Under the pieces are notes generated by a model. The model made no database searches, was not told the DNA's origin, and was given only the letters and a program-made list of their open reading frames with translations. Position numbers and translations under genes: made by a program. From Oscillospiraceae bacterium (GTDB lineage Bacteria; Bacillota; Clostridia; Oscillospirales; Oscillospiraceae): a stretch of 64,000 nt of DNA. Of this stretch, positions 60,200-64,000 are shown piece by piece (within the stretch, counting starts at the first letter, position 1; every line of letters starts with the position of its first letter). The stretch lies in assembly GCA_902775355.1 (NCBI GenBank), contig CACYLY010000029.1, forward strand, positions 1 to 64,000. Direction: 5' to 3'.

Positions 60200-60652
60200 T
60201 CAGCTTTCCATCTGCTTTCCCAAAAACAGGGCCACGGTCTGGGCCAGCTTGTATTCCACCTCCGTGCCCGGGACGCTGCCCCGGGGCGTCACGAAGAGCA
60301 CGCAGCCCAGCACGTCCCCCTCCGCCAGCACCGGCGCCGCCACGGACAGGCAGTAGCTTTCATCCTCGCTTGTCACGGGAAGGCTGCTGCCGCCGCTCTG
60401 GTGGCGATAGACCCGGCGATTTTCCATGATCTCGTGGAGCTGGGGACTGAGGGGCTTCTCCAGCAGCTCCCGCTTGGCGCCTCCCGCCACGGCGATCACC
60501 GCGTCCCGGTCGCAGACGACGGCGATGCCGTCAGTAGCCTTGCGCAGGCTGTCGCAGATCTGGGCCGCGAAGTCCGAGAGCTCCCCGATGGGCGAGTACT
60601 TCTTGAAAATCAGCTCCCCGTCCTTGTCCGTGAAGATCTCCAGCGGGTCACC
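60200..60652 (-). pseudogene. spoVT: 3' part of spoVT split by the element
   Basis: 150 codons equivalent to residues ~29-178 of SpoVT, a forespore regulator that modulates sigma-G genes and spore germination. Homology begins exactly at GDPLEIF, in the middle of the AbrB DNA-binding domain. The missing ~28 codons (MKATGIVRRIDDLGRVVIPKEIRRTL-type, carrying the DNA-binding hairpin) should lie at the far end of the element, beyond 64000. Without excision no full SpoVT can be made from this locus. Confidence 0.88.
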
Positions 60653-62398
60653 GTCACAGATAACATTGGCACGAAAAACCTTGTCCGGACGCTTCTCGGT
60701 TTCCTGGACTATTGTGACTTGTAAGCTATCTTTCGTGCCGAAATTAAAAGTGTCTGCGCTCTTTTCTGACTTTTCAGACGCATTTGCATCTTCCGGCAGC
60801 GTACCGCAGCGCAAAATGCTGTCGATGTCGGCCTTGAGCTTGATTTGGACATGATCCTCGTAGACATAGATTTTGTCAATGATCAGGTGCAGATCCTTCG
60901 GATCAAGCTTGTCCTTCTCCAGGATCTCATCGAAAACCTCGATAGCAGTCTTGGCCGCCCGGTTGACCCGAATGATGGTGCTCTCCCGATCCTTTGTCAG
61001 CTCGATCTGCTTTTCCAGGCTGGAAATCCGATTTTCGATGTCCGCCTCCATCTCGTCATAGGTCTGGTTGATGATGGACTCGTTCTGCGGCCGCTTGGTC
61101 AGGTCCCGCACCCGCTGCCGCTTTGCGATCCGCAGCTCGTCCCGGAGCTCTGTGAGGATTGCTTCCATGTTGTCGGCGGCAGTTTCCCGTTCCGCCAGGT
61201 CCCGGTCCTGATTTTGAATGTCGGCCTGCAGCTTTTCGATCATCTCCGCCGAGGTCTCCCGCACTTTTCGAAGGTAATCCTTCAGCAGAGAGTCCAGGGT
61301 CTCCACCCGGATGTAGTGGCTGGTGCAGCCCTTCAGCCCGTGGCGGTGATAGGTGCCGCAGCGGTAGGCATCCCGCAGATCCGGCCGGCTCATGGAAAAC
61401 ATGGGGCTGCCGCAGTCTCCGCAAACGAGAAAACCGGTGTAGGTGTTCTCGTATTTTTTGACCCCGCGGTAGTCGCTCCTGGAGCGCGAGCGCCGCAGCT
61501 CCTCCACGATCCGGAAGTCCCGGTACTCGATGATCGCCTGATGGTGGTTCTCGATGACGATCTGCTCGTCTTCGTCCTTCTTCACGTCCTTGCCGTTGAT
61601 CTTCTGACGGGTGTACTTGCTCTGGCGCAGGGTGCCGATGTAAAAGTCGTTTTCCAAAATCCCCTGCACAGAGACGATGGCCCACTCCGACTTGACCGTG
61701 CGCTTGTACTCTTTGCCCTCGGCCTCCTTGCGCTCGCGCTCGGACATGCGCGGGGTGGGGATGCCCTCGTCGGTGAGGTAGTTGGCGATCCGCTTGTAGC
61801 CCCAGCCCTCGATGTACAGCTGGAAGATCTTGCGCACGATCTCAGCCTCCGTGGGCACGACCTCGAACTCCTGCCGCGCGTTGATCTTGTAGCCGTAGGG
61901 CGCGGCGCAGATCCACTTGCCGTCCTTCTGGCGGCGGTTGACCACGGCGCGCACCTTTTTGGACGCGTCCGTGACCGGCATCTCGTTAATGAGAAACTGG
62001 AACTGGATCTTCAGCCAATCGTCATCGTTGGGAAAGTCGATCCCGTCCCCGATAGAGATGATGCGTACGCCGGCGTCGCGCAGATCCTCCAGCTCCACCA
62101 GCCCGCGGCTGTTGCGGCGGGAGAAACGGGAGAAATCCTTGACCACTAGGATGTCGTAAGTGTGATTGAGCAGTCCCTTGCGCATCATCTGATACCCTTC
62201 CCGCTGCTCAAAGGTGTAACCGGAGCGGTCGCGGTCTTCAAAGAAGCTCAGGCTGCTGCCGGGGAATTTTTCTTTGACGAAGTCGGCAATGATCGCCTTC
62301 TGGTTTTCGATCGAGGTGTTGTCCCGATCCAGCTCTTCATCGACGGAAATCCGGCAGTATCCCGCAATATCGAAGGTTTCTATCACAACAATCACCAA
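60200..62398 (-). CDS. Large serine recombinase fused in frame to the C-terminus of SpoVT
   Basis: 732 residues. Residues 1-150: resolvase catalytic domain, YCRISVDEE with the nucleophilic Ser, SIENQK, DRDRSGYTFEQREGYQMM and VVKDFSRFSRRN. Residues ~165-300: recombinase domain. Residues ~325-365: zinc ribbon CGDCG...CGTYHRHGLKGC. A long coiled coil follows (~370-480). From GDPLEIFTDKDGELIFKKYSPIGELSDF (residue ~583) to the end it is SpoVT: the end of the AbrB swapped-hairpin plus the GAF domain (VAGGAKRELLEKPLSPQL, EGDVLGCVLF). The recombinase (~582 residues) is thus joined to 150 residues of a split host gene. TTG start is tentative; a GTG follows at once. Confidence 0.9.
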   Translation of the reverse strand: MVIVVIETFDIAGYCRISVDEELDRDNTSIENQKAIIADFVKEKFPGSSLSFFEDRDRSGYTFEQREGYQMMRKGLLNHTYDILVVKDFSRFSRRNSRGLVELEDLRDAGVRIISIGDGIDFPNDDDWLKIQFQFLINEMPVTDASKKVRAVVNRRQKDGKWICAAPYGYKINARQEFEVVPTEAEIVRKIFQLYIEGWGYKRIANYLTDEGIPTPRMSERERKEAEGKEYKRTVKSEWAIVSVQGILENDFYIGTLRQSKYTRQKINGKDVKKDEDEQIVIENHHQAIIEYRDFRIVEELRRSRSRSDYRGVKKYENTYTGFLVCGDCGSPMFSMSRPDLRDAYRCGTYHRHGLKGCTSHYIRVETLDSLLKDYLRKVRETSAEMIEKLQADIQNQDRDLAERETAADNMEAILTELRDELRIAKRQRVRDLTKRPQNESIINQTYDEMEADIENRISSLEKQIELTKDRESTIIRVNRAAKTAIEVFDEILEKDKLDPKDLHLIIDKIYVYEDHVQIKLKADIDSILRCGTLPEDANASEKSEKSADTFNFGTKDSLQVTIVQETEKRPDKVFRANVICDGDPLEIFTDKDGELIFKKYSPIGELSDFAAQICDSLRKATDGIAVVCDRDAVIAVAGGAKRELLEKPLSPQLHEIMENRRVYRHQSGGSSLPVTSEDESYCLSVAAPVLAEGDVLGCVLFVTPRGSVPGTEVEYKLAQTVALFLGKQMES
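60640..60670. other. Predicted attachment-site junction (att) in spoVT
   Basis: Homology to SpoVT stops at 60652. The minus strand reads GTTATCTGTGACGGTGACCC across the junction; the core exchanged by the recombinase should lie within about GACGGTGACCCGC. The exact core cannot be set without the other end of the element. Confidence 0.6.
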
Positions 62399-62422
62399 CT
62401 TTCTATTTTGCTTGTTGATAGT

Positions 62423-62450
62423 ATTGTAACATGTTTTTTCGGGATTGCAA
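62423..62450 (-). promoter_or_regulatory. Promoter of the recombinase gene
   Basis: Minus strand TTGCAA (62445-62450), 16 bases, TACAAT (62423-62428). Start only ~15 bases before the coding region. Confidence 0.7.
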
Positions 62451-62577
62451 GAGTTTTTTTGTTGTCGGCAAAAGGGCCGCGCCCTTCATGGGTGCAGCTC
62501 AAATTATCATTACTTAATATGGAATCTGTATCTTGTACCTCCGCAGTATGCAAGGACGCCATTTTTCGGCTCGATAC

Positions 62578-62611
62578 TTGACAAAACGATAATTACTGGT
62601 TATAATACCAG
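62578..62611 (+). promoter_or_regulatory. Promoter and likely operator of the element repressor
   Basis: TTGACA (62578-62583), 17 bases, TATAAT (62601-62606). CTGGT and ACCAG flank the -10 (62596-62611) as an inverted repeat, suited to autorepression by the Xre protein. Confidence 0.82.
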
Positions 62612-62634
62612 CAGAATTTGAAAGGAGGAAGACC

Positions 62635-62967
62635 ATGAGCACAGAAAGGAACCCTTTCAGCGTAAGGCTGGAAGAATTGCTTAAAGCCCGACGCATGACG
62701 CAAAAGGAGTTGGCAGAAAAGGCCGAGGTCACGGAAGCGGCCATGTCCCACTATATCAAAGGGGATCGTACCCCTCGTTCCTCTGTTCTCGCCCGGATCG
62801 CAATGGCTCTCGGTACTACATCGGAATACCTAATGGAGGGTGTTCCCCAGAGCTACGTTGATGAAATCGGCTATGCCAAAAGGTTGATTGCCCGCAATGT
62901 GGATCAGATGACTACCGCCGAGAAAAGAGAGATTTTGAGCATCTTGCTCGGTGACCGGGAGGGCTGA
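62635..62967 (+). CDS. Xre family repressor of the mobile element
   Basis: 110 residues after AAAGGAGG. HTH_3 domain at ~9-65: RLEELLKARRMTQKELAEKAEVTEAAMSHYIKGDRTPRSSVLARIAMALGTTSEYL. The C-terminal ~40 residues are helical without a peptidase. With the ImmA/IrrE protease gene six bases downstream it forms the ICEBs1-like ImmR-ImmA switch, where the protease destroys the repressor to induce the element. Lower GC than the flanking chromosome supports transfer. Confidence 0.92.
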   Translation: MSTERNPFSVRLEELLKARRMTQKELAEKAEVTEAAMSHYIKGDRTPRSSVLARIAMALGTTSEYLMEGVPQSYVDEIGYAKRLIARNVDQMTTAEKREILSILLGDREG

Positions 62968-62973
62968 TACCGC

Positions 62974-63522
62974 ATGAGATTGTCCGCCGAACAGTATGAG
63001 TTCATCAAAGGGGAGGTCGTCGCCCTCTTTGAACGCTATGACGTCCGATGTATTCCCATAAGTGGCTTCGAGCTGGCATATAAGATGGGGATTGCCCTCA
63101 TCCCCTACTCGGCGTTGACGGAAAAACAACGGTCAGCTGCTATGAAGGTCAGTACCGACGGTTTTTACATGGAGGATCGGCTTGGGAACGACCTTATCTA
63201 TTACAATGATGACGAGGGCATTTCCTATGAACGTACAAATATGACCATCCTCCACGAAATTGGTCATTGCGTGCTGGATCATACGGGAGAGTCCGATGCG
63301 GAGGAAACAGAGGCGGGCTTCTTTGCCAAGTACGCAGCTGCCCCGCCCCCCCTTATCCATCGGATCAAACCGGAAAGGCCAGAAGAAATAGCCGATATAT
63401 TCAACATCAGCTACGAGGCTGCCTGTTACGCCATGGAGTATTACCAGAAATGGCTGGCCTTTGGCGGCAAGGACTATACGGAATATGAAGTCAGACTGCT
63501 TCGACTGTTCGATGTGGCGTAA
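62974..63522 (+). CDS. ImmA/IrrE family metallopeptidase
   Basis: 182 residues. Zinc site ILHEIGHCVLDHTGESDAEETEAGFFAKYAAAPPPLI: HEIGH (~93) and the downstream Glu of EAGFFA (~110). The usual reading is E-A-(N/D)-xF-A-x-xLL-P, closely followed here. It should cleave the adjacent Xre repressor. Six bases separate the two genes, so they are co-transcribed. Confidence 0.93.
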   Translation: MRLSAEQYEFIKGEVVALFERYDVRCIPISGFELAYKMGIALIPYSALTEKQRSAAMKVSTDGFYMEDRLGNDLIYYNDDEGISYERTNMTILHEIGHCVLDHTGESDAEETEAGFFAKYAAAPPPLIHRIKPERPEEIADIFNISYEAACYAMEYYQKWLAFGGKDYTEYEVRLLRLFDVA

Positions 63523-63566
63523 AATTGAAAGGGGGAATGCGTATGCTTGTGCGTGAACAAGAAAAA

Positions 63567-63604
63567 GCGCCGCTGTGACTGTTACCAGCAATCACAACAG
63601 CGCC
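63567..63604. terminator. Hairpin after immA-like gene
   Basis: GCGCCGCTGTGA / TCACAACAGCGCC stem, with AAAAA on the left, so strongest for minus-strand transcripts. An 11-codon frame with a GGGGG site (63543-63578) runs into it and is probably not a gene. Confidence 0.55.
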
Positions 63605-63615
63605 GTTTCTCCGAA

Positions 63616-63742
63616 TATCTCTATTCGTGATAGGACAATATCAGTATAGTGATATTCGGAGAGAAAGTCAATATTTTTGTAAATCGGGTATTGACAAAAT
63701 CCTTGCAACACGCTCCGGGTATCTCTATTCGTGATAGGACAA
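63616..63742. promoter_or_regulatory. Operator-like direct repeats in the element
   Basis: The 23-base sequence TATCTCTATTCGTGATAGGACAA occurs exactly twice (given as start TATCTCTATTCG, end GATAGGACAA) at 63616-63638 and 63720-63742. Between them lies TATCAGTATAGTGATA, and TTGACA at 63691-63696. These look like binding sites controlling the next operon. Confidence 0.6.
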
Positions 63743-63838
63743 CTCGATATGAGATACCTTGGAGCGCAGGACTCAGGGCAAAATCTTACTAACGAAGCGC
63801 GATTGCCCTGTTTTATGCGCAGATGGGAGGGTTGTACC

Positions 63839-63901
63839 ATGTACGACTCCAATCACTATACGAGGTATCGTTATGAGACGCAGAAAAACCATATTCGATG
63901 A
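63839..63901 (+). CDS. 20-residue leader-like peptide
   Basis: MYDSNHYTRYRYETQKNHIR after GGGAGGG at a seven-base spacing, by far the best ribosome site here. It overlaps the next gene's start in another frame, so it may couple its translation. Rich in Tyr and Arg. Confidence 0.4.
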   Translation: MYDSNHYTRYRYETQKNHIR

Positions 63902-64000
63902 CGGCTTCCAAGAGCGGCTGACGAAGGGCGCTACCATAGTCGGTGCGCCGGGTATCCCGATGCTGATGGATCTTGACAACGTACAAGTTCCGAGAGACAT
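63873..64000 (+). CDS. Partial element gene, possibly DUF4417
   Basis: Frame from ATG at 63873 runs off the window: MRRRKTIFDDGFQERLTKGATIVGAPGIPMLMDLDNVQVPRD. The order 'FxDGF...GIP(M)L' recalls DUF4417 proteins of mobile elements, but only 42 residues are visible. Weak ribosome site of its own; translation may depend on the overlapping 20-codon frame. Confidence 0.4.
   Translation, partial: MRRRKTIFDDGFQERLTKGATIVGAPGIPMLMDLDNVQVPRD

What the first reader, a model, noticed from the sequence alone, without database searches (positions are those of the whole stretch)
60200..64000. Mobile element with a serine recombinase splits the sporulation gene spoVT and leaves an in-frame recombinase-SpoVT fusion
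Residues ~583-732 of the recombinase frame are unmistakably SpoVT from GDPLEIFTDKDGE onward, while the first ~28 SpoVT codons are absent. The recombinase is followed by Xre and ImmA/IrrE genes of an integrated element. Known precedents are elements inside sigK (skin) and several other spore genes that are excised in the mother cell; I know of no described one in spoVT, which acts in the forespore. Because SpoVT is a forespore regulator, developmental excision here would have to work in the compartment destined for inheritance, or the insertion simply disables SpoVT. The fusion also gives the recombinase a GAF domain only in the integrated state, a possible built-in sensor of integration.
Basis: partly seen in the sequence, partly recalled or inferred. 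Interest (0 to 1): 0.93.

Follow-up and report, generated by a model that had tools for sequence, protein, structure and literature searches.

The report
Mobile elements that split gene spoVT
A widespread family of apparently mobile DNA elements in gut bacteria sits at one exact point inside spoVT, a gene likely needed to make spores, cutting it in two and fusing the element's recombinase to part of SpoVT; cutting the element out would restore the gene, so it likely works as a reversible off-switch for spore formation.

Summary
Window 60200-62398 (-) is an open serine recombinase-SpoVT fusion. The missing 30-codon spoVT start lies on contig C25 of the same genome, joined in frame to a 25-codon element tail. 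In 14 other genomes both halves lie on one contig and strand, 12-81 kb apart, and again in the one-contig genome G298. Joining the flanks in silico gives a 179-184 aa SpoVT frame in 15 of 15 cases; one has lost its first 10 codons. The two element ends combine into a dyad-symmetric predicted attP overlapping the recombinase's 3' end. A recombinase ending in such a tail, without SpoVT, exists in public data (P0121). Recombinase and SpoVT histories disagree, so the element appears to move between species. All 80 best loci kept from 424 relatives carry the fusion. Likely an integrative mobilizable element family and a reversible spoVT switch; two elements examined carry anti-phage genes. When and where excision happens is not shown. 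spoVT is not among the split sporulation genes in the paper passages I saw.

The parts
60200..62398 (-). Recombinase-SpoVT_C fusion ORF (732 codons, TTG start)
   Evidence: Open frame; Pfam Resolvase, Recombinase, Zn ribbon and SpoVT_C
60200..60652 (-). 3' part of spoVT (codon 31 to stop; 150 codons) from the crossover core on
   Evidence: Aligns with SpoVT of solved structure 2w1t and with intact relatives
60645..60652 (-). Shared core GGTGACCC (attR), spoVT codons 31-33
   Evidence: Same core or a near variant at both element ends and in intact spoVT genes
60653..62398 (-). Recombinase proper; its 3' end is the recombinase-side half of the predicted attP
   Evidence: dyad symmetry; P0121 continues from the same point into an element tail
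62423..62450 (-). Vegetative-type promoter-like site of the recombinase (TTGCAA-16-TACAAT, 9 of 12, TG before the second hexamer)
   Evidence: Consensus scan only
62578..62606 (+). Promoter-like site upstream of the Xre gene (12 of 12 matches)
   Evidence: Consensus scan only
62635..62967 (+). Xre-family HTH regulator of the element
   Evidence: HTH_3, E 6.7e-11
62974..63522 (+). ImmA/IrrE-like metallopeptidase
   Evidence: Peptidase_M78, E 1.5e-5
63759..64000 (+). Start of a DUF4417 protein, runs past the window to contig position 64532
   Evidence: The element continues to the contig end at 67614 with a MobA/MobL relaxase fragment (L002:6736-7614 -)

Best explanation
The window shows a serine recombinase gene running in frame into the 3' part of spoVT, which is one end of a likely integrative mobilizable element; the recombinase is predicted to insert it at codons 31-33, and the 5' part of spoVT, found on another contig joined to an element tail, likely marks the other end. 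In 14 other genomes both ends are seen on one contig. The predicted attP overlaps the 3' end of the recombinase gene: in the free circle the recombinase would end in its own tail of about 25 residues, and on integration it would trade that tail for the C-terminal (GAF) part of SpoVT, while the first 30 SpoVT residues plus GDP are joined to the tail. Precise excision would restore both genes. Because the promoter and the SpoVT parts of most split copies look maintained, the insertion is likely a reversible off-switch: most cells carry the element and cannot make SpoVT, and a minority that have lost it, before or during sporulation, would make the spores. Excision is predicted to use the recombinase, made from a vegetative-type promoter, plus an unidentified directionality factor.
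For: N-terminal spoVT pieces joined in frame to an element tail in the own genome. Both halves on one contig and strand in 14 genomes, 12.0-80.7 kb apart, and in the one-contig genome G298 (15,604 bp); by coordinates also in G249 (one contig) and G154. Joined flanks give a 179-184 aa frame in 15 of 15, with an intact start region in 14. Predicted attP symmetric at 14.4 of 20 arm positions (range 10-16), against a median of 5.1 over the centres tried and 8.1 for attB at the same centre. P0121 (602 aa recombinase, no SpoVT_C) ends in the predicted kind of tail. Tail evolves as coding sequence in the recombinase frame: pN/pS 0.24 against 0.93 and 1.44 in the other frames for six congeneric tails; 0.43 against 0.88 and 1.14 for 17 tails. 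Recombinase and SpoVT-C distances: Spearman 0.22, against 0.63 between recombinase halves (76 of 80 loci). Fused L099 against intact L033: dN 0.006, dS 0.30. Forespore-type promoter upstream of the 9 N fragments examined. G533 keeps an old N|tail end beside a complete spoVT with a duplicated 5' region. Relaxases in this element and in two others.
Against: No attP pattern in 102 genus genomes, no junction-spanning long frame listed in 400 family genomes, no exact match in viral contigs; P0121 is the only free form and its contig was not seen, so a tandem insertion could also explain it. Timing and compartment of excision not shown; no forespore-type promoter followed by an ORF in 15 element stretches. 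G149 (Flintibacter muris) has lost the first 10 spoVT codons, so excision could not restore it; the recombinase of G037 is in two frames; the tail of G068 is frameshifted. dN/dS medians are higher for pairs with fused copies (0.40 and 0.40) than for intact pairs (0.18), with saturation not resolved, and single fused pairs reach 0.93. No N fragment with tail was found in 5 of 25 and 5 of 12 fused genomes. In this genome the two ends are on different contigs.
Confidence: 0.82

Rival explanations
1. Plain parasitic insertion: the element uses spoVT only as a landing site, SpoVT is lost for good, and the host lineage stops sporulating or will be replaced.
For: G149 has lost the start of spoVT; the G068 tail is frameshifted; the G037 recombinase is in two frames; no excised junction in assembled genomes; no sporulation-type promoter found at element genes.
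Against: SpoVT parts and the spoVT promoter are intact in most split copies examined; a free-form recombinase exists; sigG is at full length in 19 of 26 genomes with the fusion; G533 has a complete spoVT beside an old element end.
Confidence: 0.22
2. Developmentally timed excision inside the forespore, as skin does in the mother cell: the spore would carry the restored gene and the excised circle, which reintegrates after germination.
For: spoVT is a forespore gene in C. difficile, controlled by sigmaF and sigmaG (PMC3789822, passages seen), and a forespore-type promoter precedes the split copies examined; the known SPbeta system times excision through its directionality factor (PMC4191935, passages seen).
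Against: No forespore-type promoter tied to an element gene in 15 stretches; the recombinase has a vegetative-type promoter-like site; SPbeta excision in PMC4191935 is mother-cell specific.
Confidence: 0.2
3. A fixed, vertically inherited recombinase-SpoVT fusion protein used by the host as a regulator.
For: Very common and open in frame.
Against: Recombinase and SpoVT histories disagree; 10 of 50 congeners with a match have a fused frame of 510-816 codons while the others have 127-269; cargo and size differ between elements; N-terminal half at the other end.
Confidence: 0.02
4. Assembly or binning artefact.
For: Mostly metagenome-assembled genomes; in the window's own genome the two ends are on different contigs.
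Against: Same arrangement in the one-contig genome G298 and, by coordinates, in the one-contig genome G249, and in records titled as strains or isolates.
Confidence: 0.01

Closest known systems
skin element in sigK (B. subtilis, C. difficile)
   Same: Serine recombinase element inside a sporulation gene; excision rebuilds the frame
   Different: skin sits in a mother-cell sigma factor gene and is excised during sporulation (PMC10747680 passages; start of the PMC5025042 abstract); here the target is the forespore regulator gene spoVT, timing is unknown, and the recombinase is fused to the target
SPbeta prophage in spsM (SprA/SprB)
   Same: By sequence, the nearest solved recombinase is YokA of SPbeta (that YokA is SprA is recalled). 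Recombinase expressed in vegetative cells, attachment sites with inverted repeats (PMC4191935 passages)
   Different: SPbeta is a phage; no phage structural family was found here in the 10 proteins scanned; relaxases are present instead
gin element in gerE (B. cereus)
   Same: Non-phage element; inverted repeat around a 9-nt core shared with the target gene (PMC5595907 passages)
   Different: Other target gene (mother cell), three serine recombinases; no recombinase-target fusion in the passages that I read
yin element in yabG and vfbin in spoVFB
   Same: Elements in sporulation genes; yin also seen as a circle (PMC10747680 passages)
   Different: yin reported from one strain; the spoVT family spans many genera
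Gut integrative mobilizable elements such as IME_Rho_tet
   Same: Relaxase plus serine recombinase, spread among gut bacteria (PMC12904643 passages)
   Different: spoVT and sporulation do not occur in that paper's main text

Membership tests
Sporulation-gene intervening elements (skin type) | Element lies inside a sporulation gene, same core at both ends | tested here: met
   14 same-contig pairs, core GGTGACCC or a near variant at both ends
Sporulation-gene intervening elements (skin type) | Precise excision restores the reading frame | tested here: met
   In silico: 179-184 aa frame in 15 of 15, start region intact in 14 of 15
Sporulation-gene intervening elements (skin type) | Excision happens during sporulation | not testable with these tools
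   No expression or read data; a free form exists (P0121) but says nothing on timing
Sporulation-gene intervening elements (skin type) | Recombination directionality factor | tested here: inconclusive
   No small protein common to all 12 elements compared; one small-protein family in 6 of 12, role unknown
Sporulation-gene intervening elements (skin type) | Excision in the mother cell only | not testable with these tools
   Target gene has a forespore-type promoter, unlike the mother-cell targets described in PMC4191935 and PMC10747680
Large serine recombinases | Resolvase, Recombinase and zinc-ribbon domains, conserved N-terminal serine | tested here: met
   R16 and S18 invariant in 9 sequences; that S18 is the catalytic serine is inferred
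Integrative mobilizable element | Integrase plus relaxase on the element | tested here: met
   MobA/MobL fragment on this element's contig, MobA/MobL in G049 and relaxase PF03432 in G298; not checked in every element
Integrative mobilizable element | Transfer with a helper element | not testable with these tools
   Horizontal movement inferred from discordant histories only
Prophage | Phage structural genes | tested here: inconclusive
   No structural PHROG among 10 proteins from this element and G298; the other elements were not scanned for it

The most novel reading that the evidence does not exclude
The swap of C-termini is the control device: the free recombinase, ending in its own tail, integrates; the integrated recombinase, now ending in the SpoVT GAF domain, is held in check until the GAF domain meets its forespore signal or partner and then excises the element in the compartment that becomes the spore, with the circle carried along and reinserted after germination. 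The element would thus read spore development through the very gene part that it took from its host.
Probability: 0.13. Interest if true: 0.94.

Novelty: new variant of a known kind. Interest (0 to 1): 0.8.

Why it matters
The split sporulation genes in the paper passages I saw are mother-cell genes, in a cell that dies, so losing the element there costs nothing. spoVT acts in the forespore in C. difficile, and its mutant there gave no heat-resistant spores (PMC3789822). An element that closes and may reopen this gene would decide whether a lineage can make spores, hence likely spread between hosts, and must solve how to survive in the inherited genome. It is common across Oscillospiraceae and neighbours, two copies examined carry anti-phage genes, and records titled as strains carry it, so excision can be tested by PCR. 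A recombinase that exchanges its own C-terminus with its target on each integration is also a testable idea on directionality.

Tried and rejected
Synteny of the two contig flanks with four intact relatives: uninformative, beyond spoVT itself almost nothing matched. attP patterns in genus genomes and viral contigs: nothing (exact or near-exact patterns, so low sensitivity). P0121 in viral contigs: nothing. Plasmid records: best matches all under 60% identity. Phage records: the two best-covered hits are human-fecal 'Bacteriophage sp.' contigs; one (L291, 73%) stops just before the junction, the other (L292, 51%) shows the fusion again. Sigma-G family cut-off: only 1 of 26 genomes passes it, so I judged sigG by score gap and length. 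My first sigG reference was a wrong-strand ORF, redone. AlphaFold model of the fusion: poor overall (mean pLDDT 61.7); the SpoVT domain is confident (block means 82-92 over 611-730) after a low-confidence stretch at 532-604; no fold search made. Vertical fusion protein: rejected. Assembly artefact: rejected. Not tried: a scan of the elements for drug-resistance genes.

Papers: passages seen of PMC3789822, PMC10747680, PMC5595907, PMC12904643, PMC10083194 and PMC4191935; PMC5025042 only as a listing with the start of its abstract. That spoVT is not described as a split target rests on searches; subscription papers and supplements were not seen.
Full report
WHAT IS IN THE WINDOW. ORF 60200-62398 on the minus strand is 732 codons long and open. 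It holds Resolvase, Recombinase and zinc-ribbon domains and then a full-length SpoVT_C domain. Residues 583-732 are SpoVT from codon 31 on; the core GGTGACCC lies at 60645-60652. The window is positions 1-64000 of contig C29 (67,614 bp) of a 2.86 Mb, 87.5% complete assembly. To the right follow Xre, ImmA/IrrE-like and DUF4417 genes and, at the contig end, a MobA/MobL relaxase fragment.

THE MISSING HALF. A SpoVT N-terminal query found two N-terminal-only fragments in the same genome, both on contig C25. Copy B (L011:11499) begins MKATGIVRRIDDLGRVVIPKEIRRTLRIREGDP and then runs in frame into SQTTLEKWQKFAFSMLDLANRMGLE and a stop. Copy A, 2.3 kb upstream, is decayed: its ATG has become AGG. The SpoVT C-part has a single match in this genome. 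Among the loci of relatives, 24 showed an unfused spoVT start; 22 of these are genes of 179-180 codons, one is 174 and one is broken after 21 codons; the intact ones carry GGTGACCCG or a synonym at codons 31-33.

BOTH ENDS ON ONE CONTIG. In G045, G049, G054, G068, G149, G155, G156, G157, G159, G160, G161, G165, G168 and G170 the N fragment with tail and the fusion lie on the same contig and strand, 12.0 to 80.7 kb apart. G298, a one-contig genome, shows the same with a 15,604-bp element and only one SpoVT C-part. By coordinates only, G154 and G249, also one contig (N|tail match at 2538855, fusion at 2578993), are further pairs. Joining the flanks in a script gives a 179-184 codon frame in 15 of 15 cases (the 14 plus the window's genome) and 180 in G298. 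Of the 15, 13 start with ATG, G161 starts with a leucine codon, and G149 has lost its first 10 codons and could not be restored. The pair in the window's own genome comes from two contigs and is therefore an inference.

THE ATTACHMENT SITE. Putting the recombinase-side half next to the tail-side half gives a predicted attP with 14.4 of 20 symmetric arm positions on average over 15 elements (range 10-16). The median over the centres tried is 5.1; at the same centre attB scores 8.1 and the N|tail junction 9.1, and the best value of the fusion junction, at another centre, is 10.3. So the recombinase's 3' end and the tail were likely one site. The prediction is that the free element encodes a recombinase ending in that tail. 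A database search with the predicted end returned 25 proteins, of which one lacks SpoVT_C and matches across the junction: P0121 (602 aa), whose end reads ...RANVISDGDPSQTTLAWWEQFSFGILNLEKRQGWDRTS. A second search with P0121's own end found no other. Its DNA was not seen, so a circle and a tandem insertion cannot be told apart. The tail evolves like coding sequence in the recombinase frame: pN/pS 0.24 among six congeneric tails (five genomes), against 0.93 and 1.44 in the other frames; 0.43, 0.88 and 1.14 over 17 tails, the frameshifted tail of G068 left out.

MOBILITY. Over 76 of the 80 kept loci (four missed by my pattern), recombinase and SpoVT-C distances correlate weakly (Spearman 0.22), against 0.63 between the two recombinase halves. 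Example: L177 and L142 differ by 12% in the recombinase and 57% in SpoVT-C. In pairs such as L172/L174 the recombinases are much closer than the hosts' SpoVT (20 pairs given, 19 computed). Sizes and cargo differ: G045 carries DruE1 (Druantia) and AbiEii, G049 carries MzaB, MzaC, a cytosine methylase and Vsr (10 proteins of two elements); G298 carries a relaxase, an AAA ATPase, a RhuM-family protein and S-layer-domain proteins. No phage structural family appeared among 10 proteins scanned.

HOW COMMON. In 119 relatives, 91 have a SpoVT C-part; a frame of 500 codons or more is seen in 10 of 50 congeners with a match and 3 of 41 others, and all 13 have recombinase sequence in front of the SpoVT part, that of G037 in two frames. 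A scan of genome contigs found 519 stretches, 424 confirmed relatives; all 80 kept rows, the best-scoring ones, reach query residues 730-732, the SpoVT end. Records not titled as MAGs include Flavonifractor sp. An100 and An306, Flintibacter muris DSM 110149, Butyricicoccus pullicaecorum DSM 23266, Pseudoflavonifractor sp. An85, Lachnoclostridium sp. MSJ-17 and Ruminococcaceae bacterium P7. In 25 of these genomes, 20 have an N fragment with tail (17 over its whole length, 3 partial) and 5 have none. In the 12 fused relatives searched, 7 have one (that of G068 with a shifted tail) and 5 have none. In 28 genomes SpoVT_C occurs exactly once in each; 27 are fused and G533 is not. Turned round, of 26 family genomes with an N|tail or recombinase-end match, 20 have a SpoVT C-part: 15 fused, 4 cut by a contig start, 1 complete (G533). 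Some handles denote the same genome (G322 = G157, G371 = G154, G455 = G170, by identical coordinates), so counts across calls must not be added.

IS SPOVT STILL USED? For: fused L099 against intact L033 has dN 0.006 and dS 0.30, and 15 of the 23 closest fused-fused pairs listed have dN/dS below 0.2. A forespore-type promoter (GCATA-17-AATACTA; consensus recalled, pattern drawn up after looking at this genome) precedes the 9 N fragments examined and 18 of 23 intact genes, against 11 of 1600 shuffles. G533 holds an old N|tail end and, 12.6 kb further, a complete spoVT whose 5' and upstream sequence is a second copy, with no recombinase match in the 19.5 kb stretch, as if the gene had been rebuilt; extra N|tail copies in G000, G049 and G153 fit repeated rounds of loss and rebuilding (inference). 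sigG is at full length in 19 of 26 genomes with the fusion, including the window's; in 4 it is in two pieces and in 3 only weaker, paralogue-like matches were found. Against: median dN/dS of all usable pairs is 0.40 for fused-fused and fused-intact pairs and 0.18 for intact-intact pairs, with saturation and codon bias not resolved, and the highest fused pair reaches 0.93; G149 has lost its start region; no attP or junction-spanning site is seen in 102 and 400 genomes.

MECHANISM. Shown: the split, the shared core, the in-frame fusion, the tail, the symmetry of the predicted attP, the discordant histories. Inferred: integration by this recombinase, excision, restoration of SpoVT. In C. difficile spoVT is controlled by sigmaF and sigmaG and its mutant gave no heat-resistant spores (PMC3789822, passages), so split cells would likely fail to make spores. 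The cut falls after residue 33, inside the N-terminal DNA-binding domain, so neither half should work alone (inference; domain layout recalled, alignment with 2w1t). The recombinase has a vegetative-type promoter-like site, as SPbeta's recombinase is expressed vegetatively while its directionality factor sets the timing (PMC4191935, passages). Three forespore-type promoter matches were found in 15 element stretches against 1.3 expected, none followed by an ORF by my criteria. I therefore favour excision in a minority of vegetative or predivisional cells over strictly forespore-timed excision.

COMPARISON AND NOVELTY. Split sporulation genes named in the passages seen are sigK, spsM, spoVFB, gerE and yabG, with vrin as a further element; PMC4191935 calls such targets mother cell-specific sporulation genes. 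spoVT was not found as such a target in searches. I file this as a new variant of a known kind: it meets the structural tests of an intervening element, the timing test could not be made, and it differs by its forespore target, its wide spread and the exchange of the recombinase C-terminus.

Noticed in passing
L258 and L259 (G160); L260 and L261 (G049); L262 and L263 (G037); L264 and L265 (G027): sigG, the forespore sigma factor gene, is also in two pieces on different contigs in 4 of 26 genomes searched, broken near ...STYGVP/xIxGE..., with a serine recombinase gene directly beside the 3' piece: likely a second family of forespore-gene intervening elements.
   Followed up: partly
L011:9233-9406 and L011:11499-11675 (contig C25): Two spoVT-N|tail copies 2.3 kb apart in the window's genome, the upstream one decayed; similar double copies in G049 and G153. 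Origin unexplained.
   Followed up: partly
L256:1940-14985 (G533): Relic element end plus a complete spoVT whose upstream region duplicates sequence from beyond the relic: spoVT seems to have been rebuilt after the recombinase was lost.
   Followed up: partly
upstream of spoVT in many of L015-L042 and of the split copies: A recurring inverted repeat (such as AAATCCTCCTGC...GCAGGAGGATTT) overlaps the spoVT ribosome binding site, possibly hiding it (seen by eye).
   Followed up: no
L081:8736 and L081:15110 (G027); L091:2795 (G049): Tails without spoVT-N inside the element region: likely relic ends of earlier insertions at the same site.
   Followed up: partly
L073, L074 (G045); L077, L078 (G049): spoVT elements carry anti-phage genes: Druantia DruE1 and AbiEii; MzaB, MzaC, cytosine methylase and Vsr.
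   Followed up: partly
protein P0105: Of the few named fusions listed, this 714-residue recombinase fusion is called 'stage V sporulation protein T' by its source, a likely misannotation.
   Followed up: no
L011:9741-11159 (-): An AAA/DUF4143 ATPase gene sits between the two spoVT-N copies on C25; an ORF with similar stretches ends the contig.
   Followed up: no
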